A stretch of DNA of 64,000 nt from Candidatus Amoebophilus asiaticus 5a2 (GTDB taxonomy: Bacteria; Bacteroidota; Bacteroidia; Cytophagales; Amoebophilaceae), in assembly GCF_000020565.1 (NCBI RefSeq), contig NC_010830.1, positions 662,001 to 726,000 of the forward strand, written 5' to 3'. How positions within the stretch are numbered: the stretch's first letter is position 1; every line of letters starts with the position of its first letter. This document shows positions 26,011-47,180 of this stretch, one piece after another. The notes under the pieces are model-generated. The model was not told the origin of the DNA and did not search any database. It saw nothing but the letters and a program-made list of their open reading frames with translations. The position numbers were made by a program, and so were the translations under genes.

Positions 26011-27957
26011 TTATTTACTTTTCAAGTATTTCTGCAAATAAAATAAGGGAAGATCTCTCTTCTTATACTGCTCAAAAACACGATTAATATCACTTGGGGT
26101 ACACATTATATTTGATACATAAAATGGAACTTCTTGATCATTCATTTTTTCAAAAAAAATAATTAAAGGATCTATTTTCTTTTCATATTCTTTTTTAATT
26201 AAAACAGGCAATTCCCTAGGCGATAGCTCTTTCGGCAGTTTAGTATATATCTCTTCTTCTACAAAGCTAGGGATTGTTAGCTGATCTTCTTCTATACATA
26301 ATAATTTATTTATAATGTCCTGCCACATCTTTCTAGGTCTGGAAAGCCGTAAGTCAGCTTTACTTTTCTTTATATATAAAAGTATGGTATTTGCACAAAG
26401 CGTCTGCAGACTGTAGGGTAGTTTAGAATACATAATATTTTTTGCGGCCAGTAGAGATATGGGACATAATTCCTTCTTTGTAAGCCAAGGATTTTGAGTT
26501 ACACTTATTTTTAAGCTTACATCATTATTTAAAATAGAACTAGGAAGAGTCTGTAAACGATTACTCGAGATATCAAGCTTACGTAAGTGCTTTAGCTTAT
26601 CTATAGAATAAGGTAGAAAGGTAATTCTATTACAACTTAAATCAAGTTCACATAAGTTTGTAAGACGCTCTATGCAAACAGGAAATTCTTCAAATTTATT
26701 GTTAGATAGATTTAATTTTTTTAGCCCTGTAAGTAGTGTGCTAAAATAGGCAGGTAGCCTACTTAAGTTATTAAAGGTTAAGCTAAGTTCCTCTAAACTA
26801 GTACATTGATTAATGTAGGGGGCAAGTCTAATATCTCTTCCTTGTAGATGCAAGGAACGCATAGACAGTTGATGGCAATTTATATAATGAAATATACCTG
26901 CCATTATATTATCAGGTGTCTCTATACTATAAAATCCACTGTACTTTAACATGTCTGAATTAATATCAATTTTACAAGGATTAATCAAAAGCATACGCCA
27001 ATACTCAGAAGCCCCTATATTTACAAATAGTTTCTTCCACGAATCTTGAGAACTATTTATGGTAAGGTTCACTAATAAAGCTAATATATGAAGCTTTTCT
27101 TTAGCTTCTCTATTTCCTTGTTTGCTAGCCCTTCTAAGCCACTTCATTGCTTTCTGGTTGTTTTTGGAAACCCCTTCTCCTTTAAAAAATAAAAGTCCTA
27201 ACTCATATTGTGCTTTGTTGTGCCCTTTTTTAGCAGCTATTGTAAAGCATTCGGCTGCCTTTGCCTCATCTTTTTCTTGGTCATCATAATAAAACTGCAT
27301 GCCTAGTTTATAGTTGTGCTCGGCAATAGCTCTATTTTTTCTGATTTTCTCTTCCTTAAGGGTGTACTTTAACAACCATAGTGATTCTTTTGCATATTTA
27401 TCACCCTGTTCACTAGCTTTCTTAAGATAACCAAGTGCTATTGTTGCATCTTTCTCCACGTATTCTCCATCCATATACATTATTCCAATTTTGTGTTGGG
27501 CTTTTGCATAACCTTGCTCGGCAACCTCTTTGAAGATTTCATATGCTTCTTGGTAATCTTTTGTGTTATAATAGCGAATGCCTGTTATGTACTGTTCATA
27601 CAACTCTTTTTCGGTTATATGTTTTTCTTCCTTTTGTACAGCAGACAAGTTTTGTTTTGGATAGCAATAGTTTGAGGGACTCTGATCACATTCCAAGTGT
27701 ACAGAAGAGGTGTTCGAATATTTATTGTATGCTATTGGAGGGGATGAGTTTATATTATGAAAACTAATTAAAGCGACACTTTCATTTGGAGTAGTGCCAT
27801 CTATAGGTACTATATTCGGTTCAAGGGAAGTCTTATTTTTTTTCTCTTCAGTATTAGGCCTAGGGATATTATTTTCTTTACAGCTCTCTAATAGCAAGAG
27901 GATTAATAATAAATGAATAACTACTTTTGTGTTTTGTCTGAAAGAATTATACATCAT
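26011..27957 (-). CDS. Lipoprotein with Sel1-like and leucine-rich repeats
   Basis: A 648-residue lipoprotein. The signal peptide ends at lipobox LESC, followed by CKENNIPRP (the shared NxP feature). Residues about 120-290 hold four to five Sel1-like repeats (EQGYAKAQHKIGIMYMDGE, KKGHNKAQYELGLLFFKGE). Residues about 365-485 hold leucine-rich repeats (LKKLNLSNNKFEEFP, LCELDLSCNRITFLP, LRKLDISSNRLQTLP). The last 160 residues are helical and unrecognised. Both repeat types mediate protein contacts and are typical of host-directed proteins in intracellular bacteria. No enzymatic motif is seen. The second Met codon could equally be the start. The MITE lies just downstream. Confidence 0.85.
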   Translation of the reverse strand: MMYNSFRQNTKVVIHLLLILLLLESCKENNIPRPNTEEKKNKTSLEPNIVPIDGTTPNESVALISFHNINSSPPIAYNKYSNTSSVHLECDQSPSNYCYPKQNLSAVQKEEKHITEKELYEQYITGIRYYNTKDYQEAYEIFKEVAEQGYAKAQHKIGIMYMDGEYVEKDATIALGYLKKASEQGDKYAKESLWLLKYTLKEEKIRKNRAIAEHNYKLGMQFYYDDQEKDEAKAAECFTIAAKKGHNKAQYELGLLFFKGEGVSKNNQKAMKWLRRASKQGNREAKEKLHILALLVNLTINSSQDSWKKLFVNIGASEYWRMLLINPCKIDINSDMLKYSGFYSIETPDNIMAGIFHYINCHQLSMRSLHLQGRDIRLAPYINQCTSLEELSLTFNNLSRLPAYFSTLLTGLKKLNLSNNKFEEFPVCIERLTNLCELDLSCNRITFLPYSIDKLKHLRKLDISSNRLQTLPSSILNNDVSLKISVTQNPWLTKKELCPISLLAAKNIMYSKLPYSLQTLCANTILLYIKKSKADLRLSRPRKMWQDIINKLLCIEEDQLTIPSFVEEEIYTKLPKELSPRELPVLIKKEYEKKIDPLIIFFEKMNDQEVPFYVSNIMCTPSDINRVFEQYKKRDLPLFYLQKYLKSK

Positions 27958-28877: not shown

Positions 28878-30398
28878 TTAAGAAAATATCCATTTTATAT
28901 GAGGATATTGTTCTCTTAACAGTGCTTGAGTCTCTCTTTTTAAAAGATTAATAGGTTTCAACCCTATCTCTTCTAGTTGAGTGCCCTCTAACTCTTTAGC
29001 AACTTCCAGTATCCCTTCATCTGTTATTCCCTTATTGTGACTTAGATTAATTTTTTGAATGTTTGTACCTTGGCAGCCTTTAATAAGCGCTAATGCACCT
29101 TTATTAGTTATTTTATTACTAACTAAAGAAATTTCTTCTAAAATAGTATTCTTTAGTTTATCAGACATTTCGATAATACCTTTATCTGTTATCTCATTTC
29201 CTCCTAGATAAATCCTTTTTAGTAAACTGCTCTGTATATTTTCTATTATACCTATTATTCCTTTATCTCCTATCCTGTTTCTCTCAAGATTCATTTCGTC
29301 TAACTCTATAAGTTTTATGTTTTTAGCAACTTCTATAGCACCTTCATCTTTTATCTGATTACTTGTTAGATGTATAGTTTTTATTTGTTTTGGCAGATGT
29401 TTGGTTAGAGCTGCTGCACCTGCAGCTTGCAATTGATTGCTGCTTAAATCAATTTTTCTTATAGTTTTATTTACAGCTAAGGATTTTGCAAATGCTTGCG
29501 CTCCTTTTGCTTTTATTAGATTTGACCACAATAGTACAGCACGGACCTTGCTGCTTTGCAAACATTTTCCTAATAGTGCTACCCCTTCACATCCTATTTT
29601 ATTAAGAGAAAGGTTAACTGTATGCACTTGAGTATCTGCTAAATATGGCCAGTATATAGGGGGTAAATTTTTTACTTCTCTTAAAAATTGATAAAAAATA
29701 AAGCTAGGCATACTACTAAGCTTATTTGTATATTTTTTAAAATCTAACTGTTTTATAGAGGACCACTTAGCTTGTGGTATACTTCGGTCTGGTTTATTGT
29801 CTACTCCTACTTTGCCTACTTGCTCATAGCCAGTTATAAGGCTATAAAAATGATGATTAAGCTCTCTTGTAATCATAGCCTCTTTATAAGATAAGTACGA
29901 TACCACTTCTTCTAATAGCTCTGTGGGTAGGTCTAGAAAGTTTAGTTTTCCCTGTCTGGTCTTCTTTTTAAGAGGCCCATCTGTATCTATACTTTCTGAT
30001 GCTGTTATGGAGGTTTCTTCTTCTGTAGCAGTTAAGTCAATTATCTGCTCTCTCTTTCGTTTAGCTGGCTGCATGAGACTTGCTGACGAACGCTCTTTCT
30101 CATCAGGTATTTTAAGTGCATTAACCTCTTCCTTTTTAAGAAATGCAACTTTAGACGTGCTATCATCTTCTATTACTATTACTTTTGTACCATCTTTCGG
30201 CACAAGTGGCATGTTAGTTTTAGCGTTTGAATAATTCCTTTTTGCCTTTCTAATGAAAGTTCTTTTAGCTGCTTGATGAGTAGTTACTTTTTGTTGTGCA
30301 ATCGCAGGAGGTAAATTTTCCAAGTTACAACTCTGCAGAAAGATAGTTATACTACAAATTAGGAATAATACTTTTAGAAAAGATGAATGCTTGCTCAT
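28878..30398 (-). CDS. F-box / leucine-rich-repeat lipoprotein
   Basis: A 506-residue lipoprotein. Lipobox LQSC is followed by CNLENLPPAI (NxP feature) and a charged, disordered linker to about residue 145. The F-box lies at about 150-190 (LDLPTELLEEVVSYLSYKE), a motif that in eukaryotes docks Skp1 of SCF ubiquitin ligases. After a conserved middle (GKVGVDNKPDRS, also in the broken relative at 9020: GIVGVENKPCH) come about nine ribonuclease-inhibitor-type LRRs (KTIHLTSNQIKDEGAIEVA). The C-terminus LLREQYPHIKWIFS matches LLVEQYPHIKWGF of the 9020 gene, so the two are paralogues. Host-directed ubiquitin interference is the usual hypothesis for such proteins; it is inference here. Confidence 0.9.
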   Translation of the reverse strand: MSKHSSFLKVLFLICSITIFLQSCNLENLPPAIAQQKVTTHQAAKRTFIRKAKRNYSNAKTNMPLVPKDGTKVIVIEDDSTSKVAFLKKEEVNALKIPDEKERSSASLMQPAKRKREQIIDLTATEEETSITASESIDTDGPLKKKTRQGKLNFLDLPTELLEEVVSYLSYKEAMITRELNHHFYSLITGYEQVGKVGVDNKPDRSIPQAKWSSIKQLDFKKYTNKLSSMPSFIFYQFLREVKNLPPIYWPYLADTQVHTVNLSLNKIGCEGVALLGKCLQSSKVRAVLLWSNLIKAKGAQAFAKSLAVNKTIRKIDLSSNQLQAAGAAALTKHLPKQIKTIHLTSNQIKDEGAIEVAKNIKLIELDEMNLERNRIGDKGIIGIIENIQSSLLKRIYLGGNEITDKGIIEMSDKLKNTILEEISLVSNKITNKGALALIKGCQGTNIQKINLSHNKGITDEGILEVAKELEGTQLEEIGLKPINLLKRETQALLREQYPHIKWIFS

Positions 30399-30468: not shown

Positions 30469-33400
30469 TTAACTATCGGCCCGTTCTCTTTTAACAATAT
30501 TCTCTAAGAGCTCAGTTGGTAATACATCATCGGACTCATAATACTCTAATGCTTTAGCTTCATCTTTTTCTACCCCTTTACCAAGTGAGTACATTAAAGC
30601 TAGACGCAGTTTTGCATTTGCATGACCCTGGTCAGCAGCTGTTTCAAACAATTCAATTGCCCTAGTTTCATCCATTTCTCCTAATTTATCACCCAGTAAG
30701 AGGTTGCCTAATTTAAAACAAGCTTCTGCATGACCTTGGCTAGCCACCTTTTCATACCATTCAGATGCCTCAATGTAATCATCCATATTTTCATAAAGTC
30801 TACCTACTTCAAACTGAGCATCTATATGCTCTTGCTCAGCTGCCGCTTTGTACCAGCGAAGTGCTTGTTCTAAGTCCTTTCTTTTTATGCCCCAGGCATT
30901 CTCATACATCTTACCTAGCCTATATTGTGCTTCTTGACTTCCTTGAATAGCAGCTTCTTGATACCATTTAAAAGCTTTTATATAGTTTTGCCCTTCCTGA
31001 TCCTCATAATACATATCGGCTAGTCTGATCTGTGCTTCCAAGTAACCAAATTCAGCTGCGCCTTTATAATATTTTTTAGCTTTTTTATAATCTTGCTCTA
31101 TACCCTTACCCTCATAATACATATTTGCTAAATAAAGCTTAGCTTTCATATTTCCCATATTAGCAGCAGTTGTATAATATTTCATTGCTTTAATAGGGTT
31201 TTTTTCTAATTCTAACAAACCGTTTTGATATATCTTACCTAGTCTATAAGCTGCTTTAGCATGACCTTTGTCCACCGCTATCTCAAACATATTGATTGCA
31301 ATAGAAGCATTAGTTTTATTTTCTCCTTTTCCCTTATGTGCTTTTTGTTTTACTAAGCCTTTTTCATAGAGTCTACCTAATTCATAACGTGCTCCTGCAT
31401 GTCCTTGATCAGCTGCTCTTCTATAGAATTCACTTATTTGCTCTAAAGAGTACTCCTCACTTTTATTCTTTTCTTTTCCTTTTTTTTGCTTTTCTTGCTC
31501 TATTTGTATTTGCTGTTCCTTCCATTTAATTTGATACAGTTGAGCCAAATTAAAGAGAGCCTCTGTATACTTATCTTTTTTCTTTTCAATGTTTTTATTC
31601 CCAGCAATCAGTTCATACAATCCTATTGCTGCCTCAAAATTTTCTGATACTCCTATTCCATCTTTATACCTTCTGGCTAATTCAAATTGTGCATCAATAT
31701 TTCCTTTTCTTGAACGGTCTTTTAGTTTTTTTAAGTCCTCTTTGGTATTATCTAGGTTATCTTTTCTATCTTTCAAATAACGTATAGCATCTGCTACAGC
31801 ATCTACCCGATCATCATGTAAAGGTTTGCGTCCATCAAAATAACTTGTTGAGTGAGCTTTATTTTTTACTATTGACATTAATTGATAAAAGAATTTATAG
31901 TACAGATTATCTTGGGGCTTAGATTCAAAATCATTTTTAAGTGCCTCTCGATTAATAACAATTTGATGATTGATTAACAAAGGACGAAGCGTTTCTAAGA
32001 TTCTTTTTTCTTTGTTTTTTCCTTGATGGACTGAATCAAATTTTATCACCCTGAATTTTACATCCTTAGAAGATTCTAATTCTAGCATCTCTTTCTCTAA
32101 GAGCTTCACAAAAGATTTATCATTGTTATTTTCAACAATTATTCTGCTAACACCATATTCTTGGGCAATTAGTATTAATTTTTTTAAAACCTCTGGACTA
32201 TTTCCTAAGCTGTGCTTGGGGTTTTCTTCATCTTCAGATTCCAAATTCTCCCTAGCATAACTCCCGGCCATTCCTCCAACATCCATAATATAATAGTAAT
32301 CTCCACATCGTTTGGCCACACAATATGCCGTTTCATCAGTACCTTTTCCAGAAGGATCAATAGTCATAATGGCATCCTCATATTTGCGTGTATTCGCATA
32401 CTCAAACAAGGGACCAAAAATCATGTCTGCATTAGCTTCTTTAAATGAATCGTAATTCCCTCCCCATGCCACCTCCCCAGGTGCCTTATTAACATCTAAA
32501 TCCATTACAATTAGATCAGATATCCGCATAGGGCCTTGCCAACTAGGTTCTGATGTTGTTCTTTTCTTCTTTCTTCTTTCTAAGTCTTCTATAGATAGTT
32601 TGAATTCCTTTTTTGCGCTTGCTTGAAATTCTCCAAAATTTAACTCTGTGCCTTGAATAGCACTTTCAACTGCTTGTTGATACCACTCAATTGCGTGTTT
32701 ATCTAAATTGTTAGGCACATATAAACCTAGAGCTCTTAATTTTATAAGAGCCTTTGCCGCTGTTGAGTTTTTAGTTTTGGCAATTTTCTTATAATATATA
32801 GTTGCCCATTCAAGAAGTTCTGAACCTTGTTCTGTAGTCTCTTGATTGCCTAAATATTGTTTATATTGTTCCCATGGGAAACTTAATAAGAACTCCTTAG
32901 CATTATTATATTTAGCCTTATCTTTTTTAGAGTCAAGTTTATCAAGTTGGCTCAGTATGTTTTTTAGCTTATTCTCTAGCTCTTTTCTAGCTTGTTCTTG
33001 CTTATTTTCTTCCTGTCCTTTTTCACCTTCACCAGAAGAGGAAGAAGAGGAAACGGTTATTCTTTTTATTTTTTTTCTACTTCCTCCTAGTAAACCTCCT
33101 ATATATACAACACCTGCTTGGGAAGCGGTCGGAAAAACAACTTGGATAAGCTTTGAAGGGGGTTTGTCGGGTTGGTAGTTATCTATAGTAAGTAATCTGT
33201 TTATATTTTCTATTAATTCTTCATCTTCTCCTAAATTAGCTATTAAGTGAAACTTCGTAGATGCATCATCTGTTACTTCAGCTTTCCATATATTTCTCTC
33301 TTTATAAAATCTAACTATATACCCTCCTTGAACTCCAAAGATCTTATTTATCAGCTGTACCTCTTTTTCTTGCATAGCTTGTTTTTTAGCTTCTCTATGC

Positions 33401-33873
33401 TGATTAGAAAGCAGATCTTTAGCCAAGAAACCTTTATTTTGATTTATAGGGGTTTTAGATACTAACTGTTGATCCTTTTCAAAAGAAGGTTCTACAATAT
33501 TTGAGGTATCATCCTCATTCTCTATAAAGGAATCAGTTGGCGAGTCAAAAAAAGTAACTTTATACTGGTTAGTACTAGTGTTATTCGGATGTAGTTGGCC
33601 TTCTTGTAGTATTTCAGCAGGTAGCTTATTAAAATAAGAATCATACTTTTTGTCTGCTTGTAAATAGGCGCCTTTTGATGCTTCTGTATTATTAGAAGAA
33701 GGCGGTTGGGTAACGGATTTAGACTTGGAATCTTTTGATCTTTTTGAATTAGGAATAATATGGTTATAAGACTCTGAACAGCCTTCTAAAAATCCTATAA
33801 CTAGAAATAGCAAGATTGCTGAAACTAAAATATGGGTGCCTAACCGATTAATTAACGGACGCTCTTGTTTCAT
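30469..33873 (-). CDS. Lipoprotein with shared N-terminal domain, phage terminase nuclease domain and Sel1 repeats
   Basis: A 1134-residue continuous frame. Lipobox LEGC is at Cys32, then CSESYNHIIPN and a polar linker. Residues about 170-265 form the domain shared with the 34932 and 42834 genes, ending VVYIGGLLGGS. A basic, serine- and charge-rich stretch follows. Residues about 435-695 match the nuclease half of T7 gp19-like terminase large subunits: SDLIVMDLDVNKAPGEVAWG, then the RNase H-fold acids in TIDPSGKGTDETAYCV, SRIIVENNNDKSF and LHDDRVDAVADAIRYL. The Walker ATPase half is absent. From about 705 to the end there are ten or more Sel1-like repeats (DQGHAGARYELGRLYEKG). All three catalytic acids are retained, so nuclease activity is plausible. 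The combination is new to me. Confidence 0.85.
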   Translation of the reverse strand: MKQERPLINRLGTHILVSAILLFLVIGFLEGCSESYNHIIPNSKRSKDSKSKSVTQPPSSNNTEASKGAYLQADKKYDSYFNKLPAEILQEGQLHPNNTSTNQYKVTFFDSPTDSFIENEDDTSNIVEPSFEKDQQLVSKTPINQNKGFLAKDLLSNQHREAKKQAMQEKEVQLINKIFGVQGGYIVRFYKERNIWKAEVTDDASTKFHLIANLGEDEELIENINRLLTIDNYQPDKPPSKLIQVVFPTASQAGVVYIGGLLGGSRKKIKRITVSSSSSSGEGEKGQEENKQEQARKELENKLKNILSQLDKLDSKKDKAKYNNAKEFLLSFPWEQYKQYLGNQETTEQGSELLEWATIYYKKIAKTKNSTAAKALIKLRALGLYVPNNLDKHAIEWYQQAVESAIQGTELNFGEFQASAKKEFKLSIEDLERRKKKRTTSEPSWQGPMRISDLIVMDLDVNKAPGEVAWGGNYDSFKEANADMIFGPLFEYANTRKYEDAIMTIDPSGKGTDETAYCVAKRCGDYYYIMDVGGMAGSYARENLESEDEENPKHSLGNSPEVLKKLILIAQEYGVSRIIVENNNDKSFVKLLEKEMLELESSKDVKFRVIKFDSVHQGKNKEKRILETLRPLLINHQIVINREALKNDFESKPQDNLYYKFFYQLMSIVKNKAHSTSYFDGRKPLHDDRVDAVADAIRYLKDRKDNLDNTKEDLKKLKDRSRKGNIDAQFELARRYKDGIGVSENFEAAIGLYELIAGNKNIEKKKDKYTEALFNLAQLYQIKWKEQQIQIEQEKQKKGKEKNKSEEYSLEQISEFYRRAADQGHAGARYELGRLYEKGLVKQKAHKGKGENKTNASIAINMFEIAVDKGHAKAAYRLGKIYQNGLLELEKNPIKAMKYYTTAANMGNMKAKLYLANMYYEGKGIEQDYKKAKKYYKGAAEFGYLEAQIRLADMYYEDQEGQNYIKAFKWYQEAAIQGSQEAQYRLGKMYENAWGIKRKDLEQALRWYKAAAEQEHIDAQFEVGRLYENMDDYIEASEWYEKVASQGHAEACFKLGNLLLGDKLGEMDETRAIELFETAADQGHANAKLRLALMYSLGKGVEKDEAKALEYYESDDVLPTELLENIVKRERADS

Positions 33874-34931: not shown

Positions 34932-37900
34932 TTATTCTGAAGCAGGCTCCAGAGGGCGAGATAGCAAGGATTGGATCGTCTTCAACAATTCTTCTTTCCG
35001 GTAAGGCTTGGTATTGTAGGCATCCATACCAGCTTTTTTAGCTGTTTCACCATAGATCTCTTCTGCGTAAGCTGATAAGCCAATAATAGGTATGGAAGGT
35101 ACGCCTAGTTGCTGTTCTTTTTTACGAATCCATCCAGTTGCCTCTATGCCACCCATCACGGGCATTTCCAGATCCATCAAGATTAGATCAAATGCTGCTA
35201 AATTCCATTGTTCGAGAGTTTCAACTTCCTCGATCGCTCCAATGGCTTCGATTGCTTTTTGGCCGTTGTCAGCTACCATACAGGTGTATCCTGCTGCTTC
35301 TAATTGCCTACGTAGAATTTTTTGGTTCACTATATTATCTTCGACTATGAGAATATGCTTTACTGCTATAGGGGGTAAAATGGGCAAAGGAGCAGGTGGT
35401 TTTTGGTAGATCAATTTTTCTCCTATATCAACCATCTCGCACGTTAAATGGATGGTAAAGGTCGAACCTTGTCCTTTTACACTATCCACTTGAATAGTAC
35501 CTCCCATCAAATCGAGTAATTTTTTGCTAATGGCAAGCCCTAACCCGGAACCTTCATATTGGGAAGAGAGCGGGCGTGAAAAACGTTGAAATAAACACGA
35601 TTGTTCCTCAGGGGTCATGCCAATGCCTGTATCTTCCACGCGGATGACTAATTCCACATGGGTCGAATCAACGGCTTGGGTTTGGAAGCTAATTTTGATA
35701 TGTCCTTTTTCAGTAAACTTAATGGCATTGGAAATTAAATTAATTAAAATCATTTTGAAGCGTTCAGGATCCCCCTGAATGGCTATAGCCTGCTTGGGTA
35801 GGTCTATAATTAAGTTAAGCTGCTTGGTCTTTAATTGAGATGTAAACAGGAGAATACTCTCTTCAATGATTGTTTTGGGTTTAAATGGCTTGAGGAGCAA
35901 TTTCTCTTTTCCTGCTTCCAATCTAGACAAATTGAGAACCCCATTAATAACAACTAACTGATGATTAACGCAGTGCTGAATCGTCTGGATGTCCTCTTCC
36001 AGTGTTGGCAAAAGTTCCTTTAATTCTGGCTGAAAAGAACCCGGTAAGCTTTCTTTAAGTTTTTTTAATGAAGTTATCTTTTCCTCCAAAAAAACTACTG
36101 TGTTAGAAATGCCATTCATGGGATTGCGAATTTCATGACAAACGGTATTAATAAACTCTTCTTGCTGTTTGAAGTAACGCTCGGCTTCATCTGCCCGTTG
36201 CTGTTCTTTTTCTTTTGCTTGCTGTAACGCTTCCAGCCGATCTTGTTCTAACTTTTTACGCTCAGTTATGTCTAAGCATACCCCTGTCATTTTTATCGGA
36301 CTACCAGAGGTTGTATCACGATAAACCTGTCCATGAGCTGTGATCATATGCTGGCTACCATCTGGCCATATAACTCGATAATCTATACTATGAGGAGTGC
36401 TTTGTTTAACACAATTATCAATATTTTTTTCAAACTGTTCTTTATCTTCAGGATGCACTCGCTCCCTAACTTCTTCAAATGTTCCCCTAAAGGTATCAGG
36501 TGTTAAACCGAATAAAGCATACATAGTGGCATCCCATACAACTTTATTACTATCAATCCACCAGCTCCAGGTACCTGCTTGGGAAGCTTCTAAGGCTAAT
36601 TTCAAATCATGGGTTACCACATGTAAAGATTCTTCTGCTATTTTTCTACGGGTGGATTGCTCAGCTAACTGTTGCGTTAATGCCAGTTGTTCAGCAACAT
36701 ACCGAGCATTTTCTAAGGAAATAGCGATCTGTGCTGTTAAAATTAACACAGTTTGCATGTGTTCAGGAGTAAAGGCATGGGTCATCAGGTTGTTTTCTAG
36801 ATATAAGATGGCTCGCAGTTCGGTTTGCTTCAGCAGAGGAATACATAAAATAGATTTCGCCTGCGTTCGGTTAATATATGGATCAATTTTAAATTGCTCA
36901 TGGATTGTGGCATTGTCTAATACAACGGATTGATGAAGGCGTTTGACATACTGGATGACTGTATGTGCCCCATGCTCCCAATCAGCCAGGGGTATCTTCT
37001 GCAGTGTAGTGATAGTATTGTCGCTAGCATATTCTGCTTGTACGACAACAGTATCGCCTGCCTCTACAAATAATACTGCGCCTTGCTGGGCACCGGCATT
37101 TTCAATGATAATTTGCATCATATTACGTAAGAGTTTGGGCAACTCAATTTCACTGGAAATAGTTTGTGAAGCTTTTAAGATGCTGGATAAATCTAAATAC
37201 CTTAAGGTATTACTACTTAGAGTGGTTTCTTGATTGACCGTTAAATAACTCAAACTAGGAGGTACAAGGTCTTTTAATAAATATTCATATTGTGTTTTAA
37301 ACTGCATTAGTTTACGTTTAGCCCCCCATTGCTTATAGCCATTAAAGGCTGTATTGAGATACCCTTGTGCTGACAAGGTTTTACCTCTTGTCAGCCAATA
37401 TTTAGCAGCTAATTCAGCTGCCAATGCTTTTTCTTGAATAAACCCATGCCGATCAGCTAACTCGATAGCTTGGTCATAGTAGGCTTCTGCTTGCTGATAA
37501 TTTTCTTGTAGCTTAAAAATTTCGGCTTCAACTAATGCATATTTATGAGCAAAGTTTGCTGGACAACTAGCTTGCCATTTCTGCATCTGTTGTTGATTTT
37601 TAATTACTTGTTGAAGGTAAATTTGCTGGTCTGCAATAGAAGATGTTGGATAAAGGGCTAAACGTACCAAAGAATCATACCAGTTAAATAGTGCTGTGGC
37701 ATATTGACTAAGGATAAGCACTAAATGTTGTTTTACCAAGGCCAACTGGCCAAACGCTTGTTTAAAGTGGCCATAGAGATAAAAGGTCTGGGCTTTGAGA
37801 ATTTGGTAGAGACATAAGGAATAAAAGCTGCTTGCTTGTTGACAACTCTTTTTAAATCTAGCTTCAGTAATAGCATCAGCATCAAAATTCCATTCATCCA

Positions 37901-40900
37901 AGGTATTTCCTATTAAATTTACTACCAGCCTCTGTACTGTTTGAATGGTATTAATGGCCACTTGGTTTTTCGTGTTGTATGTAAATTGTAGCAGTGGCAA
38001 TATCTCTTGTTGCACCTTGGCTAAAGACATACCCTGATAAAATAGCAACTGTGCCTTCATAGATACACAGTGACCGGCATATTCGAGTTCCCCACACGCC
38101 AGTCCCACTTTATAACCATCAGTCAATAAAGCAGGTAACTGTTGAATGGATTTTGACCAGGGGGAAATAAGAGCTAACATAATAAGTAAACTTTTACAGT
38201 GTTGAGCGGGCGCCTGTAGTTTTTTTGCCAGCTGAATAGATAACTGGCCAAATTCATAGCCTAAAGCATGTTCTTCAAACCTATTACAAAGTAATGATCC
38301 ATATACTGTATACCCCAGGCAAGATTCAGGAGCGTGCCCATAGGTTAACGCTAGGTCGATGGACATCAATGTAGCAGCGGTCAATAATTCTGATCCAGCA
38401 AAGTAACATGCGGCCACGAGACTTTCTAATATTTTCAATAGGGCCTTCTTCTCAGGTTCAACGACGAGTGGTGCATTTAATAAAGAGGACAAAGGAATAT
38501 TATGGAGTTTTTGTTTTATATCATCAGTTGCTTTTTGGATAAATTCAGTCAGATTATCTAATGGTAACCAAATACCAAGTAATTGTAGAGTTTTGTGGCC
38601 AAGAGCAATCGCTTCTTGATAGTGACCCTGAAGCGTCTTTTGAATGATAAGTAAATGATAAATATCAACTTTATCCAAATTGGATTGCAAGCGAGGCTGC
38701 ATATCGGCAATGATAGCTTGTGAGGTGTCCATGTAGCCACCTAAATATTCTACTTCGGCTAGTTCTTTATGGAAGGTAAAGGCCAGTGGATAATCGGATT
38801 GCCAGAGTATCTCTGTGTCGATCCATTTTGGGATAGTATGCAGGTAATCTAATGCCACCCCATAGGCGGTGGATTGCTTAGCCTTTTGTCCTGATTTCAG
38901 GTTTAAACGCGCTATGTGCAGGCGTTCTTGGGAATCGGTTACCAGGGAACAGCACCGATTAAATTGGGCAACAATATCCGACAGTAACTTTTCTTCACTG
39001 GTGGGGCTAACGAGTAACCGTCTTCCAATCATTAAATGTGTACGGGTTTTGATAGTTTCTGGTAATAAATGATAGGCCGCCTCTTGCACCCGATCATGAG
39101 CAAAATATATTTCATGGTCAGTCTGTATCAAAATACCACTATTTAAGGCTGGTTGTAAGGACTTTTCTAACTCCTGATGCGAACAAGCCATCGCCGTTTG
39201 TAAGGTACTTAATACCAGACGATGACCTATACAGCTGGCTATACTTAAAGCCTGTTGAGTGGAAACTGGTAGTTGTTGAATTTGGTAAGTCATCAGGGTA
39301 ATCACATTCTCTGTTGCTGGATGTTGACGGATTTTATCGAGATCCCATTGCCAGTGGCTTTGTGGAGCAAAGGTTAACAACTGCTCATCATACAGAGATT
39401 GTAAAAATAATTTGACAAAAAAGGGATTTCCTGCTGTTTTTTGAAAAATTAGTTCAACCAGCGGTTGAGCATCCATGATGGATTTGTGCAAACTATCGGT
39501 GATCCACTGACACAAATTTTTAAGTTGCAGTGGTGCGAGCGTGAGCGTTTGGACGGTGATAGACGCTTCTTGTAAAGCAGTAATGGACTGTAGGGCTGGA
39601 TGAGAAGGGGTGACCTCTGTATCCCTATAAGCACCTATCCATAGTAAATGTTTGATACTAGGCTGTGTCATTAAATAGGTCATTAACTCCAGGCTAGCCT
39701 GATCGGCCCACTGTAAGTCATCTAAGAAAATCACTAAGGGATGGGATGGAGTAGTACAAAACTTAATAAACTCCTGGAAAATCCAGTTGAGTACATTTTT
39801 GGCCTGACTCATGTCTGCAATCGCCGTCTCGGGCTGTTCATCGATTAGTAAGGCTAAGCTAGGAATAACCTTGATCAGCAATGACGCTTGCGTTCCTAAT
39901 GATTCCATCAACCGAATTTTCCATTGCATGATACTAGTTTGGTCTTCAGTCAGCCATTGCTGAACTAAACTATTAAAAGCCTGGGCGAAGGCACTATAGG
40001 CCACGTTTTTATTCAACTGGTCAAATTTGCCCGTTATAAAATAGCCATGCTGCAAGGCAATCGGCTTTTGGATCTCCTGGATCAGCATGGTTTTACCCAC
40101 TCCAGGTTCACCAGCGACCATCAAAGCTTCACATCTTCCTTCGCTAACCCGTTCAAAAGCTTTTTCTAAGGTTTTAATTTCTTTTTCACGGCCGTATAAG
40201 TTTTGGGACAAGGTGAGTTTACTTGAAAAATCCTGTTGGCCTAGTTCAAATTCAGGAATAGCGCCCGTTTCCTTAAAGGCTGACAGGCAGACTATTAAAT
40301 CATGCAGTATGCCTTCACAACTTTGGTATCGGTTCTCCGCTTCTTTCTCCAGTAATTTCATCACCATCCGAGACAGAGATAGCGCAACAGTTGGTTTATG
40401 TTGGTGAGCAGGTATGGGCTGTCTGGCTAAGTGCTGATGAATGAGTCCCAGCGCATCTTTGGCTGTAAAGGGTGGCTCGCCACAGAGCAGCCGATAAAAG
40501 GTAACACCTAAAGAATAAAAATCCGTACGGTAATCCACACTCCGGTTAACTCGCCCTGTTTGCTCGGGTGAGATATAGGTTAAGGTGCCTACCATCATTG
40601 GCATGGTAGGAGGTCTTTCCTGTCGCAAGGTAGAAGAGCGATTAAAATCAATGATTTTGATAAGATTAGTTGTTGGTTGAATGAGGATGTTGTTCAGTTT
40701 GAGATCACTGTGAATGATATTTGCAGCATGGATAGCCTGTAAGCCCTCAACAATTTGAATAGCGATTTCTAAAAATTCCTGGTTGGAAAACCCTGTGGGT
40801 GGAAGGATAGCATTCAACTCCACGGCCTGATCATCTTCCATGACTATGGCCATACCATACGCTGCATCTTGTTTGAGCTCCAGATAGCGAACTACATACG

Positions 40901-41834
40901 GGGAATGGACCTGCTGGCCTAATTCAAATTCTCGCCGAAAGCGTTGTGCCTTTTTCTCAGTCAACACTTTTTGGGTGCTGACTTTAATTACGACTGGGCA
41001 CTCATCTGAAAGACGTACGGCCCGATAGATATTCGAGGAGGTTCCCTCATGTAAACAATGGAGTAATTTATAACCAGGTAGAACTAAATGGTTTTCTCTT
41101 TTTAATTCCATACCACCTACCTGCAAATATCCTGTCTGCTCGCTTTTAGCTAAATTCGCATGGATAAGTTGCTTTTGTTCCTCCTTGATCGAGCTTGTTG
41201 CATGCAGTTCTTTCTCTACAGGTACTGATAAATCATATGTTTTGTTAAATTCTGAAGGGGAATTCCCTTCTCCTTTGGCTTTGAGATGGTTGATTTCTTG
41301 TTTAGAACTAATCAGCTGACCTGCCTGAGCTATAAGTTTTTTCTCTTCTAACGCCTGGTACTGATCATCTTTTAATTTTTCTTTGCCTTTATTTTTGCCT
41401 GTATTACTGCCCCCTTTCAATCCCGCATGGCCAATCCAAATAGAACCAGAGTCTTTCCGCTTCGGTAAATTTATATGGATAAATCTTTTTTGTGCTGCTT
41501 CATTTAATTGGGCTACTTGTGCGATATCCATTCCTTCTTCTATATAAACAGGCAGCATATGGACTTTGCTTAAACCTTCATTTTGTTCTATTACTTCAGC
41601 TTGTAATCTTCCTGTTTTTTCATAAAAAGTAATCAAATGACCCCCTTTTGTGGTAAATTCTATATCTACTATAGATCGAATAGCTATTTGAGGAATTATT
41701 TCTTGTGTATGATCTGTTTGACCTTTTTTTATAGGAATAGGTGAATTAGTGAGGTTAACGCAACTTTGCAAAATTAAACTCGCCAGGAAAACACAGCCCA
41801 TTAATGACTGGCCAAAATGATGGTTGTTCTTCAT
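34932..41834 (-). CDS. Giant lipoprotein: Ser/Thr kinase, AAA-type ATPase, helical repeats, GAF, PAS, histidine kinase and receiver
   Basis: A 2300-residue continuous frame. Lipobox LQSC at Cys25 is followed by CVNLTNSPIP. Residues about 50-142 form the shared N-terminal domain ending SGSIWIGHAGLKGGS. A Ser/Thr kinase follows from about 253, with IIHSDLKLNN as catalytic loop and IIDFN in place of DFG. An orc/AAA-like ATPase with P-loop GEPGVGKTML lies near 573. A long helical region runs to about 1500, then GAF near 1560-1690 and PAS near 1740-1850. The histidine kinase has CHEIRNPMNG near 1897, N box LINLISNAIKF and G boxes DTGIGM and GSGLGLAISK. The receiver has its phospho-acceptor Asp in LILMDLEMP near 2218. 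The kinase-ATPase-GAF-HK core is a known 'trifunctional' type in cyanobacteria and others. A lipoprotein signal with no transmembrane segment is odd for ATP-using domains. Confidence 0.92.
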   Translation of the reverse strand: MKNNHHFGQSLMGCVFLASLILQSCVNLTNSPIPIKKGQTDHTQEIIPQIAIRSIVDIEFTTKGGHLITFYEKTGRLQAEVIEQNEGLSKVHMLPVYIEEGMDIAQVAQLNEAAQKRFIHINLPKRKDSGSIWIGHAGLKGGSNTGKNKGKEKLKDDQYQALEEKKLIAQAGQLISSKQEINHLKAKGEGNSPSEFNKTYDLSVPVEKELHATSSIKEEQKQLIHANLAKSEQTGYLQVGGMELKRENHLVLPGYKLLHCLHEGTSSNIYRAVRLSDECPVVIKVSTQKVLTEKKAQRFRREFELGQQVHSPYVVRYLELKQDAAYGMAIVMEDDQAVELNAILPPTGFSNQEFLEIAIQIVEGLQAIHAANIIHSDLKLNNILIQPTTNLIKIIDFNRSSTLRQERPPTMPMMVGTLTYISPEQTGRVNRSVDYRTDFYSLGVTFYRLLCGEPPFTAKDALGLIHQHLARQPIPAHQHKPTVALSLSRMVMKLLEKEAENRYQSCEGILHDLIVCLSAFKETGAIPEFELGQQDFSSKLTLSQNLYGREKEIKTLEKAFERVSEGRCEALMVAGEPGVGKTMLIQEIQKPIALQHGYFITGKFDQLNKNVAYSAFAQAFNSLVQQWLTEDQTSIMQWKIRLMESLGTQASLLIKVIPSLALLIDEQPETAIADMSQAKNVLNWIFQEFIKFCTTPSHPLVIFLDDLQWADQASLELMTYLMTQPSIKHLLWIGAYRDTEVTPSHPALQSITALQEASITVQTLTLAPLQLKNLCQWITDSLHKSIMDAQPLVELIFQKTAGNPFFVKLFLQSLYDEQLLTFAPQSHWQWDLDKIRQHPATENVITLMTYQIQQLPVSTQQALSIASCIGHRLVLSTLQTAMACSHQELEKSLQPALNSGILIQTDHEIYFAHDRVQEAAYHLLPETIKTRTHLMIGRRLLVSPTSEEKLLSDIVAQFNRCCSLVTDSQERLHIARLNLKSGQKAKQSTAYGVALDYLHTIPKWIDTEILWQSDYPLAFTFHKELAEVEYLGGYMDTSQAIIADMQPRLQSNLDKVDIYHLLIIQKTLQGHYQEAIALGHKTLQLLGIWLPLDNLTEFIQKATDDIKQKLHNIPLSSLLNAPLVVEPEKKALLKILESLVAACYFAGSELLTAATLMSIDLALTYGHAPESCLGYTVYGSLLCNRFEEHALGYEFGQLSIQLAKKLQAPAQHCKSLLIMLALISPWSKSIQQLPALLTDGYKVGLACGELEYAGHCVSMKAQLLFYQGMSLAKVQQEILPLLQFTYNTKNQVAINTIQTVQRLVVNLIGNTLDEWNFDADAITEARFKKSCQQASSFYSLCLYQILKAQTFYLYGHFKQAFGQLALVKQHLVLILSQYATALFNWYDSLVRLALYPTSSIADQQIYLQQVIKNQQQMQKWQASCPANFAHKYALVEAEIFKLQENYQQAEAYYDQAIELADRHGFIQEKALAAELAAKYWLTRGKTLSAQGYLNTAFNGYKQWGAKRKLMQFKTQYEYLLKDLVPPSLSYLTVNQETTLSSNTLRYLDLSSILKASQTISSEIELPKLLRNMMQIIIENAGAQQGAVLFVEAGDTVVVQAEYASDNTITTLQKIPLADWEHGAHTVIQYVKRLHQSVVLDNATIHEQFKIDPYINRTQAKSILCIPLLKQTELRAILYLENNLMTHAFTPEHMQTVLILTAQIAISLENARYVAEQLALTQQLAEQSTRRKIAEESLHVVTHDLKLALEASQAGTWSWWIDSNKVVWDATMYALFGLTPDTFRGTFEEVRERVHPEDKEQFEKNIDNCVKQSTPHSIDYRVIWPDGSQHMITAHGQVYRDTTSGSPIKMTGVCLDITERKKLEQDRLEALQQAKEKEQQRADEAERYFKQQEEFINTVCHEIRNPMNGISNTVVFLEEKITSLKKLKESLPGSFQPELKELLPTLEEDIQTIQHCVNHQLVVINGVLNLSRLEAGKEKLLLKPFKPKTIIEESILLFTSQLKTKQLNLIIDLPKQAIAIQGDPERFKMILINLISNAIKFTEKGHIKISFQTQAVDSTHVELVIRVEDTGIGMTPEEQSCLFQRFSRPLSSQYEGSGLGLAISKKLLDLMGGTIQVDSVKGQGSTFTIHLTCEMVDIGEKLIYQKPPAPLPILPPIAVKHILIVEDNIVNQKILRRQLEAAGYTCMVADNGQKAIEAIGAIEEVETLEQWNLAAFDLILMDLEMPVMGGIEATGWIRKKEQQLGVPSIPIIGLSAYAEEIYGETAKKAGMDAYNTKPYRKEELLKTIQSLLSRPLEPASE

Positions 41835-42833: not shown

Positions 42834-45800
42834 ATGTATAGCACTTCTAAAAGAATCATAGCTTTTATTTTACTGAGTAGTCAGCTACTAACACTAACCA
42901 GTTGTGGTGATAATTTCAATATTCCTATAGAGCAGCAAATAGCTCATGGACATAAGAAGGCAGATAAGGAACCGAGCAAAGTGGGTGCCTTAGTTCCCTT
43001 GGTAAATGGATTAGAAAGATACGTTGCCGAGACAAAGGATAAAAGAGAATCCACTTTAAGCCAATCTTTAACCAATCAGTTGCCCTTAGTTGAAAGTAAT
43101 AGTGCTTCTGCCACAGAAGGTAAAGCTCTCTTTGTAGGACGCTCTAAAACTTTAAAGAAGAATAAAGAGCAGAAGTCGGTATCGAGTCAAGCAAAAACTT
43201 TTACAACGCCGGTTTATATAGATAGACCCACAGGTTACAGTAGAAAGCTTACTCACGATAAAGCTATAGGGGACAAGCATTTTACTACCTTAAATAAGAG
43301 TAAGGATTTAGATTCTTATAGAGAGCAAGCTCGAGCCAGCCAGAAACAAGTTAGTGAGCTTAGCGATATAGCATTAAATGTTACTGTTGCTGAGCTTCTT
43401 ACAATAGACCAAGGTTTAATAGCAAAAGGAGGCCATCAAGTATATCTAACCGTTGTAGAAGGCAAGTGGATGGCAATTGTTAAAGAGAATGCTCCTATAG
43501 GTTTTAGTAGAACGCAGTATTTGGATTTATATCTAGCACCTGGTTTTACAACCAACCAGTTAAGTAAACATAGCCCTGAATGGCAAGAGGCACATATAGG
43601 AGTAGTATTTCCTGAAAAAAGTTCAACTGGCAAAGGGTATGTATATATAGGTGACGGGGGGCTGCTCGGTGGTGGGAATAGTGGTTCCAAAGGAGGCGGT
43701 GGAAATGATAGCGATAGGACATCTAGCAGAAGTGAATCTAGTGAGAGGAGTACATCTGGCTCTAGCCACAGTTCAAGTAGTAGCAGTGGTAGAGCAAGTC
43801 ATAATATTGGAAGCTCACATAGTAGTTTCAGTATGCCAAAAACTTCATCTTCCAGTTCCCATCATCGAGATAGCTTTAAGGATTTTTGTAATAAGAGTTC
43901 AGCTAATGTTTCAGCTTCGTTATCTTCTGCAGGTATAAAGCATGATACCCATAGCACTTCCCATACTAGTGATAGTTTTAAGGATTTTTGTGATAAGAGT
44001 TCAGCTAATGTCTCAGCTATGTTATCTTCTGCAGGTATAAAGCATGATACCCATAGCACTTCCCATTCTAGCTTCTCCAGCCATACTAGTTCATATTCTA
44101 GCAGCAGGGCATCTAACCAAGCTGCTAGTAGCAGTAATAGTGAAAGTAAGCCTGCTGCTTCTAAGGAGTCATCCTCTTCAAGCAAAGAATCTAAAGCCCC
44201 CCATCTTACCCTAGAGAATGCAGCTACGGAGGTGAGAAAGCACATACAAGAGGCTAAAAATGATGGTCCTAAAGCTACGAGTGTATCAGCCAGCCAGCAA
44301 CAACAAGCAAAAGGGGAGCAACTACTTAAACAGCTACGTGAAATCAAGCAACAACAGGAACGGTCGTATAGCCAAACACAGACCGCTTACATTACACCAG
44401 GTAATTCTGAAATAGGGAATAAGCTGTTGTTAGACCAGCTAACCAAAAAAGGTCAAGAATTGTCTACTTTAAAAGAATTAGAGTCAGAGCTAACACAAAG
44501 CTTAGAGCGCGAGCGTCCAACTAGCCATTATGAGGAAACAAGAAAAGAATCAATACTAGCTAGTGCTACAACTACACCAAAAGAGATTAAGGTAAAAGAT
44601 AAAGGAAAAGAAAAGGATACAAGCTTGACACCTGGTACTACCCAAGCAACAAATAACCTTCATAGTACAACCCTATCTTCGTCTGGGGACATTTCTACTG
44701 CTACAAGTACTACTGAACCACTACTCAGCACACCCACTAAAGGTCCAGCAGTTAAAGTTGAGAGTGGTACACGTAAGACAAAAATACCCTACAATGATAG
44801 AGCGGACAGTTTTAGCTATGACCACTACTCTTCAAGCACTAGCACAAATACACCTGCTGTATCAGCTACAGAGCCTACTAACCCGGCTACATCTAGTACT
44901 ACTTCCACTAGTACTACTGATAAAAGTGAAGCAGAAATTCATAACCAGTGGAGTGATTTGTTAAAGGAAATACAAGTCCAATTGGGACATTCCAAAATAC
45001 AAGGTTTAGCAGACGCTCTATATCTACAAAAACAGGCTAGATTCTATATAGAAAAATTAAAGTCGTATGAAAAATATAAATGCATTAGCAGATCTTCGCT
45101 CGAGCAAGCACTCAATGAGCTGGAAAAGCTATCTGTACAGGTTGAAGCTGCCCTGGATAAGGAGAGGTATAATGCAGTCGTAGGTGAAATCAAGCAAGTG
45201 TTGGATGCAAGAATAGAAACTATTAACAGGCTACAAGAGGAAGAAGCAGACTCAGCTATTATCATAGCAACGGCACAAGAGATAAGACCTCATGTAGAAG
45301 CAGCTATAAAACGATTGGAAGATTTCCCAACTAAACAATATAAGACACCTAGTATAGAGAACTTGAAAGAAGCTAAAAGACAACTTGAAGGGGTGATTAG
45401 AGATTATACTCACAGGAAAGTTTTATGGGATAAGTACAAGTCAGCTTTTAGCTATGCAGCCAAGCATGTTTCAAAAAGGATAGAGCAAGAGCAAGAAGAA
45501 TTAGCTAAGAGCATAGGAAAGTCAGTCGAAAAGCCTGAAATAACTATAACCAATAAGTCAGGTATAACCATAGCGCAACTAGAGGAAATTTTTCCAGAAG
45601 ACTCCAGCAATAACTTCAATTTGCAAAAACTGATAGATACTTTAGATATAACTGTTAATTTCCCAGCAGCAGAAGAGAATGCTAACAGTAGCGAGGAGGA
45701 TGAAGAAGAAGAAAGGCAAGGTGTAGAGGAGCATTTAGAAAGAGAAGCTAAGTACGAGAAAACAGTAAGCCAAAAGGAAGAACAAGAAAGGGCTAGTAGC

Positions 45801-47180
45801 CAAGCAGGTATAAATGAGAAAGAGAAAGAATCAGCAGCAAAAAGGCAAGCCAGAAAAGAACAAAGAAGAGCTAACCAAAAAGCCAGAAGAAAAGAAGCAT
45901 CTCCCAAAAAAGCCCATGAAAAAGAGCTGATAAAAATAGGACAAGCTAAAGAGCAACTTAAAAGCTTGGTTAAAGATCAAGTGAAATCTTGTGTAGAGGA
46001 TGCTGAATTTACTAATTGTAGAGTAGTATTATTGATGATCGATGAGAAGCTCAAAAAAGAACCCAATAATAAGTCTTTACAAGCGTTAAGGGTAAAACAG
46101 CTAGAGAAATTCCAAAGCCACCCGCTTTATCAGCAAGCTGTAGAGTTAGGCATAGAAGCAGCTGCATTGAGAAGAGAAGCGGAGGAAAGCGGCACAGATG
46201 AATTGATAGAAAGTGCAGAATTAGACTATAAAATATTAGCCGGTATAGGCAAGTCACGTGAATTTCGGAAAGAAGCAGAAGAGATTAGAGATAATATCAT
46301 TAACCCTTTACGGGATCTACTAGGCTGCCCACATACATCAAAAGGATTAAGAAGGGCAGCAGAAGGTTTAAAAGGTTTTGGGGAAAGCTTTTATGATACT
46401 GGAAAAGCGTTTACAGTAGATATGCCTATACTGTTGGGTAAATTGGGGGTGAGGGGAGTAGAATCATTGGTGAAGTGGGAAGATAAGTTAGGAGTCAAAG
46501 AAGGCTGGGCTAACCTAGGAAAAGCTTGTAAATGCATATTTGATCAGACAAAGCAAGACTGGGAAGATCCAGCAGCTTATAAAGCTCGTATGCAGGCTGT
46601 CCAAGAAGTAAAAAGTAGGCACGACTTTTTCTGCCGAGCATTTGATGCAGAGAATTATCATTTAGGCCAAGATAAGGCATTGGGATATATGACAGCAGAG
46701 ATAGTGCAAGCACTCTTTGGTGGAGAGATTATCAAAGGAACCACTAAAGGTGCTACCAAGGGTGTTGAGTTTATTAAGAAAATCCAGCAAGGCGCTAAAG
46801 TAGAGAAGGCGGTAGTAGAAGGGGTGAAAGGAGCAGTTAATATTGATTTAATGAATAAAGGGAAACAATTTAAAACAGCACATGAGATTGCTAGAGAAGG
46901 AGGTAAGCATGCTGGTATGTATAGAAGCAGTATACAATTGCCTGACAAGCAGCTAGAAAAAGCCCTTAAGTCTCTTGAAAAGAGTATAGAAAAGCATAAA
47001 AACTTAATAAAAGACCCAGCAAGATATCTAAAAGAATATGGAAAAGACTTAGAAGGGCCTTGGGATATGTTAAGAGCTGAAAGAAGGCAAGCTTTGATAG
47101 AAAAAATTTGGCCGAAAGAGATAAAGAACTTCAAAGAGCAAAGGGAAATTATTAAAGGCATTTTAAATAGTAGGAAATGA
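42834..47180 (+). CDS. Large lipoprotein with shared N-terminal domain and toxin-like C-terminus
   Basis: A 1448-residue protein. Lipobox LTSC at Cys24 is followed by CGDNFNIPI. A polar linker leads to the shared domain at about 180-278, ending GYVYIGDGGLLGGG. A serine/glycine-rich low-complexity part includes two nearly identical 34-residue repeats (DSFKDFC...). Long charged helical regions with coiled-coil character follow to about 1130. The C-terminal 300 residues contain a glycine/alanine hydrophobic stretch (IIKGTTKGATKGVEFIKKI) and a compact basic terminal module with EIAREGGKHAGMYRSS. This order (export anchor, variable stalk, short C-terminal module, then small genes) is that of polymorphic toxins. 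The toxin activity is not identified. Confidence 0.75.
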   Translation: MYSTSKRIIAFILLSSQLLTLTSCGDNFNIPIEQQIAHGHKKADKEPSKVGALVPLVNGLERYVAETKDKRESTLSQSLTNQLPLVESNSASATEGKALFVGRSKTLKKNKEQKSVSSQAKTFTTPVYIDRPTGYSRKLTHDKAIGDKHFTTLNKSKDLDSYREQARASQKQVSELSDIALNVTVAELLTIDQGLIAKGGHQVYLTVVEGKWMAIVKENAPIGFSRTQYLDLYLAPGFTTNQLSKHSPEWQEAHIGVVFPEKSSTGKGYVYIGDGGLLGGGNSGSKGGGGNDSDRTSSRSESSERSTSGSSHSSSSSSGRASHNIGSSHSSFSMPKTSSSSSHHRDSFKDFCNKSSANVSASLSSAGIKHDTHSTSHTSDSFKDFCDKSSANVSAMLSSAGIKHDTHSTSHSSFSSHTSSYSSSRASNQAASSSNSESKPAASKESSSSSKESKAPHLTLENAATEVRKHIQEAKNDGPKATSVSASQQQQAKGEQLLKQLREIKQQQERSYSQTQTAYITPGNSEIGNKLLLDQLTKKGQELSTLKELESELTQSLERERPTSHYEETRKESILASATTTPKEIKVKDKGKEKDTSLTPGTTQATNNLHSTTLSSSGDISTATSTTEPLLSTPTKGPAVKVESGTRKTKIPYNDRADSFSYDHYSSSTSTNTPAVSATEPTNPATSSTTSTSTTDKSEAEIHNQWSDLLKEIQVQLGHSKIQGLADALYLQKQARFYIEKLKSYEKYKCISRSSLEQALNELEKLSVQVEAALDKERYNAVVGEIKQVLDARIETINRLQEEEADSAIIIATAQEIRPHVEAAIKRLEDFPTKQYKTPSIENLKEAKRQLEGVIRDYTHRKVLWDKYKSAFSYAAKHVSKRIEQEQEELAKSIGKSVEKPEITITNKSGITIAQLEEIFPEDSSNNFNLQKLIDTLDITVNFPAAEENANSSEEDEEEERQGVEEHLEREAKYEKTVSQKEEQERASSQAGINEKEKESAAKRQARKEQRRANQKARRKEASPKKAHEKELIKIGQAKEQLKSLVKDQVKSCVEDAEFTNCRVVLLMIDEKLKKEPNNKSLQALRVKQLEKFQSHPLYQQAVELGIEAAALRREAEESGTDELIESAELDYKILAGIGKSREFRKEAEEIRDNIINPLRDLLGCPHTSKGLRRAAEGLKGFGESFYDTGKAFTVDMPILLGKLGVRGVESLVKWEDKLGVKEGWANLGKACKCIFDQTKQDWEDPAAYKARMQAVQEVKSRHDFFCRAFDAENYHLGQDKALGYMTAEIVQALFGGEIIKGTTKGATKGVEFIKKIQQGAKVEKAVVEGVKGAVNIDLMNKGKQFKTAHEIAREGGKHAGMYRSSIQLPDKQLEKALKSLEKSIEKHKNLIKDPARYLKEYGKDLEGPWDMLRAERRQALIEKIWPKEIKNFKEQREIIKGILNSRK
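43869..44072 (+). repeat. Two tandem 102-bp repeats inside the toxin-like gene
   Basis: Units starting GATAGCTTTAAGGATTTTTG (43869) and GATAGTTTTAAGGATTTTTG (43971) are nearly identical over 102 bases, each encoding 34 residues. The duplication is in frame and looks recent. Confidence 0.9.

What the first reader, a model, noticed from the sequence alone, without database searches (positions are those of the whole stretch)
31790..32570. Phage terminase nuclease domain embedded in a Sel1-repeat lipoprotein
Residues ~435-695 of the 1134-residue lipoprotein follow T7 gp19-type large terminase from the linker (SDLIVMDLDVNKAP) through all three RNase H-fold acids (TIDPSGKGTDE, IIVENN, HDDRVDA). The packaging ATPase half is missing, and the domain sits between the shared N-terminal domain and a Sel1 array. 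The frame is uninterrupted, so this is a real fusion and not an adjoining prophage gene. A secreted DNase effector derived from a packaging motor would be new to me.
Basis: partly seen in the sequence, partly recalled or inferred. Interest (0 to 1): 0.78.

Follow-up and report, generated by a model that had tools for sequence, protein, structure and literature searches.

The report
Viral DNA-cutting domain inside bacterial lipoproteins
A bacterium that lives inside amoebae has taken the DNA-cutting half of a virus's genome-packaging motor, kept its cutting site intact, and built it into at least six predicted membrane-anchored proteins of a kind otherwise used against its host; no report of this was found in the open-access papers searched.

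Summary
Residues ~448-700 of a 1134-aa predicted lipoprotein (window 30469-33873, minus) are a T7 gp19-type terminase nuclease domain: PF22530 E=1.1e-26, phiV-1 terminase structure Z=24.5, all catalytic acids aligned. The ATPase half is absent. The genome (Amoebophilus; size fits A. asiaticus 5a2) holds eight such genes plus one remnant, and sister species 36-38 holds about seven. No other relative showed it; homologues found elsewhere are terminase-length proteins, most with a detectable ATPase motif. The domains form one clade (100/100), so one capture followed by duplication is likely. The nuclease sits inside a Sel1 array, downstream of a lipobox and the N-terminal domain shared with many Amoebophilus effector-like lipoproteins (patatin, U-box, F-box, toxin payloads); some copies also carry OTU or Ulp1-like protease domains. 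Ten residues, including every catalytic acid, are invariant across 12 Amoebophilus domains and 54 terminases, and the nuclease is the slowest-evolving part of the protein. I infer a metal-dependent nuclease displayed on or released from the cell and acting on nucleic acid on the host side. DNase activity, export and target are untested. New variant of a known kind of effector.

The parts
30469..33873 (-). complete gene, 1134-aa predicted lipoprotein
   Evidence: open frame; Pfam
33778..33873 (-). signal peptide and lipobox (LEGC, Cys32), followed by C-S-E-S
   Evidence: sequence; same pattern in paralogues
33049..33396 (-). N-terminal domain (~160-275) shared with many Amoebophilus lipoproteins; probably one of the APD domains of PMC3482391
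   Evidence: own-genome search, alignment A3
32668..32817 (-). Sel1-like unit directly upstream of the nuclease, seen in most of the copies aligned
   Evidence: alignment
32458..32532 (-). terminase linker segment (PMRISDLIVMDLDVNKAPGEVAWGG)
   Evidence: aligned to T7 gp19 and to phiV-1 terminase from residue 301
31774..32361 (-). terminase-type RNase H-fold nuclease core (residues 505-700)
   Evidence: PF22530, AF2 model pLDDT 86.9, Z 24.5 to 8dgc
32356..32358 (-). catalytic Asp506 (T7 gp19 D364)
   Evidence: invariant in 66 sequences
32131..32133 (-). catalytic Glu581 (T7 gp19 E420)
   Evidence: invariant in 66 sequences
31810..31815 (-). catalytic Asp687/Asp688 of HDDRVDA (T7 gp19 D514/D515)
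   Evidence: invariant in 66 sequences
30514..31671 (-). C-terminal Sel1 repeat array (7 significant repeats)
   Evidence: Pfam Sel1 E=2e-50

Best explanation
An ancestor of these Amoebophilus species captured the nuclease half of a T7-type phage large terminase, without its ATPase, inside a Sel1-repeat lipoprotein gene, and the gene then multiplied. The protein is exported by Sec, lipidated at Cys32 and held at the cell envelope, probably at the surface. The cell lives free in amoeba cytosol, so the two Sel1 stretches would bind host proteins or macromolecules while the RNase H-fold domain hydrolyses nucleic acid by two-metal catalysis. Shown by computation: homology, fold, retained active site, purifying selection, multi-copy family, shared N-terminal chassis. 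Inferred: export, surface position, DNase activity. Unknown: target (host cytosolic, mitochondrial or viral DNA, or food DNA).
For: Homology and fold. ATPase absent: PHROG 38 covers only its C-terminal third, and a gp19 ATPase-half search is empty in both Amoebophilus genomes but finds E=1e-74 or better in two control genomes. Active site kept: ten columns invariant over 66 sequences, including D506, D513, E514, E581, K621, D687, D688, R689, D691, while other terminase-conserved positions (GD at 482-483, the FGDGMF loop, L684) have drifted. Selection: dN/dS about 0.29 in the nuclease against 0.46-0.48 in the flanks for orthologues L006/L011, and 0.20 against 0.39 in Sel1 for P0001/L009. Chassis: lipobox in the copies with intact N-termini; similar N-terminal domains lead lipoproteins with patatin, U-box, F-box, Tox-ODYAM1 and kinase payloads. 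One origin: 100/100 clade. PMC8831229 reports expression of all eukaryotic-like repeat genes, and cytosolic life.
Against: No biochemical, localisation or proteomic data. Isolated terminase nuclease domains can be weak (SPP1) or inactive (P22) without the ATPase (PMC5389553). The published surface-export signal needs two acidic residues after the cysteine (PMC5080379); this protein has one, so surface exposure is not established. Two of eight copies in this genome are disrupted and a ninth is a fragment; at least two in the sister species are disrupted, so individual copies are dispensable.
Confidence: 0.6

Rival explanations
1. The lipoprotein nuclease is nutritional: it degrades DNA or RNA at the cell envelope to supply nucleotides to a bacterium that cannot make them.
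For: PMC8831229 states that nucleotide biosynthesis pathways are missing and an ATP/ADP carrier is present; active site retained.
Against: Fusion to OTU and Ulp1-like domains in other copies and the effector-type chassis fit host manipulation better; Sel1 arrays are not needed for feeding.
Confidence: 0.17
2. The domain no longer cuts; it is kept as a nucleic-acid or protein binding module, as in the phi29 packaging ATPase, whose nuclease domain is vestigial.
For: A precedent exists (PMC7672431); isolated terminase nuclease domains can be weak (PMC5389553).
Against: In phi29 the catalytic residues are gone; here every one is invariant in 12 diverged copies (36-59% identity to this one in A2) while neighbouring positions drift.
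Confidence: 0.15
3. A periplasm- or envelope-facing nuclease that destroys incoming phage or plasmid DNA, a defence role.
For: Phage origin; the lipoprotein anchor places it at the envelope.
Against: No defence-gene neighbours among the genes scanned; repeat and deubiquitinase fusions point to the eukaryotic side. The PADLOC library was not searched.
Confidence: 0.06
4. Remnant of a prophage terminase fused by chance, without function.
For: Some copies are broken.
Against: Six long intact copies, two-species distribution, purifying selection concentrated on the nuclease, no gp19-type ATPase half in the genome.
Confidence: 0.02

Closest known systems
T7-type large terminase (gp19 / DNA maturase B), PF22530; best solved relative phiV-1 terminase 8dgc
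   Same: linker, RNase H-fold nuclease and catalytic acids, about 26-32% identity
   Different: no ATPase half, no phage packaging genes beside it among those scanned; sits in a Sec/lipobox Sel1 protein, in many copies
Amoebophilus lipobox effectors with APD1/APD2 N-terminal domains (Zhang et al. 2012, PMC3482391)
   Same: lipobox, then a shared N-terminal domain, then a variable payload
   Different: the main text of that paper lists OTU, lipase, EDA39C-like nuclease, F-box, U-box, Ulp1 and others, but no terminase-type nuclease; its additional file could not be read here
phi29 gp16 C-terminal domain (vestigial terminase nuclease, PMC7672431)
   Same: terminase nuclease fold under altered selection
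   Different: phi29 lost the active site and stays in a packaging motor; here the motor is lost and the active site kept
Tox-REase-8 nuclease effectors of Wolbachia and Amoebophilus (PMC3482391)
   Same: nuclease domain on repeat-bearing proteins of intracellular symbionts, without immunity genes
   Different: restriction-endonuclease fold and ankyrin repeats, not RNase H fold and Sel1

Membership tests
T7-type large terminase | RNase H-fold nuclease with conserved acids | tested here: met
T7-type large terminase | N-terminal packaging ATPase with Walker A | tested here: not met
   no ATPase match in P0001; gp19 ATPase half absent from the genome (controls positive)
T7-type large terminase | phage packaging genes (small subunit, portal, capsid) alongside | tested here: not met
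   the neighbours scanned are F-box/LRR and Sel1/LRR lipoproteins, a resolvase and a kinase lipoprotein; not every ORF in the window was scanned
Amoebophilus APD lipoprotein effectors | signal peptide and lipobox | tested here: met
   sequence
Amoebophilus APD lipoprotein effectors | shared N-terminal domain | tested here: inconclusive
   shared with other lipoproteins of the genome, but not compared with the published APD1/APD2 alignments, which are in an additional file that could not be read
Amoebophilus APD lipoprotein effectors | delivery to the host side | not testable with these tools
   only one acidic residue follows the cysteine; the published C. canimorsus signal has two

The most novel reading that the evidence does not exclude
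A phage DNA-packaging nuclease has been turned into a family of surface-displayed nuclease effectors that act in amoeba cytosol, possibly on mitochondrial DNA or on the DNA of competing cytoplasmic giant viruses.
Probability: 0.2. Interest if true: 0.85.

Novelty: new variant of a known kind. Interest (0 to 1): 0.62.

Why it matters
In the sequences searched, the nuclease half of a viral packaging motor appears to have been taken out of packaging and reused inside exported symbiont proteins. It would be an unexpected source of effector nucleases and would give a simple test of whether a terminase nuclease can work without its ATPase. Joining of nuclease and deubiquitinase-like domains in one polypeptide is also unusual.

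Tried and rejected
Assembly or frame artefact: rejected, since the fusion recurs in long open frames in two species. Adjoining prophage gene: rejected (one open frame; no gp19 ATPase half in the genome). Chance RNase H resemblance (RuvC, Ydc2, Tex): these score Z 8.9-10.1 against 24.5 for phiV-1 terminase. The two plasmid hits are annotated terL. The N-terminal shared domain has no convincing PDB match (best Z 3.4), which is not evidence of a new fold. Literature: no paper found describing this fusion; only open-access papers are held, and supplements could not be read.

Full report
What was checked. The 1134-residue frame at window 30469-33873 (minus) is open throughout. Pfam finds PF22530, the T7 terminase RNase H-like domain, at residues 505-638 with E=1.1e-26, and Sel1 repeats with E=2e-50. 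PHROG 38, the terminase large subunit, matches only its last third. tblastn against phages hits 2268 records, T7 gene 19 among them at 28% over 87% of the query; the top-ranked hits are Roseobacter podophages at 32%. A family profile aligns with the phiV-1 terminase from residue 301 to 530, E=1.5e-34, through all three acid motifs.

Genome context. The window lies at 662001-726000 of a single 1,884,364-base contig; the size fits Amoebophilus asiaticus 5a2 (PMC3196728 gives 1.88 Mbp; the exact strain is from my own knowledge). The genome of the same genus called G001 has contigs whose lengths match those of 'Candidatus Amoebophilus sp. 36-38'.

A gene family. The domain occurs eight times in this genome with a ninth fragment, and about seven times in G001, of which two are disrupted inside the nuclease. 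It was absent from the third genome of the genus and from the other sampled relatives of the family and order in the first search, and from the other genomes sampled in the order and phylum. On a tree of 66 domains the 12 Amoebophilus copies form one side of a branch with 100/100 support; phage sampling was limited and the bootstrap had not fully settled.

Architecture. [quoted passage not shown] Next comes a ~110-residue domain shared, at weaker similarity, with about twenty other places in the genome; those examined are lipoproteins that carry patatin, U-box, F-box, ankyrin, Tox-ODYAM1 or kinase domains. A 2012 survey named two such Amoebophilus N-terminal domains, APD1 and APD2, and predicted host-directed effectors (PMC3482391). 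Some copies then carry an OTU-like segment (one matches Wolbachia wMelOTU, E=3e-7) or a Ulp1-like segment (E=0.0018, below cut-off). Then a Sel1-like unit in most copies, the terminase linker and nuclease, and a Sel1 array.

Is the active site alive? AlphaFold2 on a 66-row alignment gives pLDDT 86.9 and pTM 0.88; phage terminase sequences were part of that alignment, so the fold is not independent of the homology. The best structural match is phiV-1 terminase, Z 24.5 over 231 residues; herpesvirus and other phage terminase nucleases follow at Z of about 12-16 and RuvC-type resolvases at or below about 10. Ten positions are invariant across all 66, among them D506, E581, D687 and D688, which align with T7 gp19 D364, E420, D514 and D515; in G20c terminase the metal ligands D294, D347 and D429 are indispensable (PMC5389553; their correspondence to D506, E581 and D688 is my own reading of the motifs). 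Several positions that phage terminases conserve outside the active site have been lost. In the two pairs compared, the nuclease has the lowest dN and dN/dS of the protein. By contrast, phi29, which needs no nuclease, lost those residues (PMC7672431).

How it probably works. A Sec-exported, lipid-anchored protein displays a metal-dependent nuclease next to Sel1 protein-binding arrays. Amoebophilus lives free in the amoeba cytosol (PMC8831229), so a surface-exposed domain would meet host cytosol. Surface display is a guess: the published export signal needs two acidic residues and only one is present (PMC5080379). The target is unknown; scavenging of nucleotides is the main rival, because the organism lacks nucleotide synthesis.

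Novelty. The chassis and the domain are each known. Their fusion, its spread to eight copies and the lack of a gp19-type ATPase half (controls) were not found in the papers searched, which are open-access only. I rate it a new variant of a known kind.

Noticed in passing
window 34932-41834 (-): 2300-aa predicted lipoprotein with a related N-terminal domain, then Ser/Thr kinase, AAA ATPase, GAF, PAS, histidine kinase and response-regulator domains.
   Followed up: partly
window 51977-55753 (-): 1258-aa protein with a Baseplate_J domain (E=4.6e-9), perhaps part of the contractile injection system known from this genus.
   Followed up: no
window 42834-47180 (+): 1448-aa frame with no Pfam match at E 1e-5.
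   Followed up: no
L139:12267-16179: Paralogue split into two overlapping frames inside an OTU-like segment; the N-terminal part carries the shared lipoprotein domain.
   Followed up: partly
L142:3867-5294 and L141 near 3024-3257 (G000:C1:606023-606256): A 475-aa paralogue lacking its N-terminal part, with a 342-aa frame nearby that resembles a transposase (not scanned), and a short remnant of a ninth nuclease domain.
   Followed up: partly
L009 and L007, upstream of the nuclease: OTU-like deubiquitinase segments in the same polypeptide as the terminase nuclease; the L009 segment matches wMelOTU at E=3e-7, the L007 one was judged by eye.
   Followed up: partly
window 28878-30398 and 26011-27957 (-): F-box plus LRR, and Sel1 plus LRR predicted lipoproteins next to this gene.
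   Followed up: no
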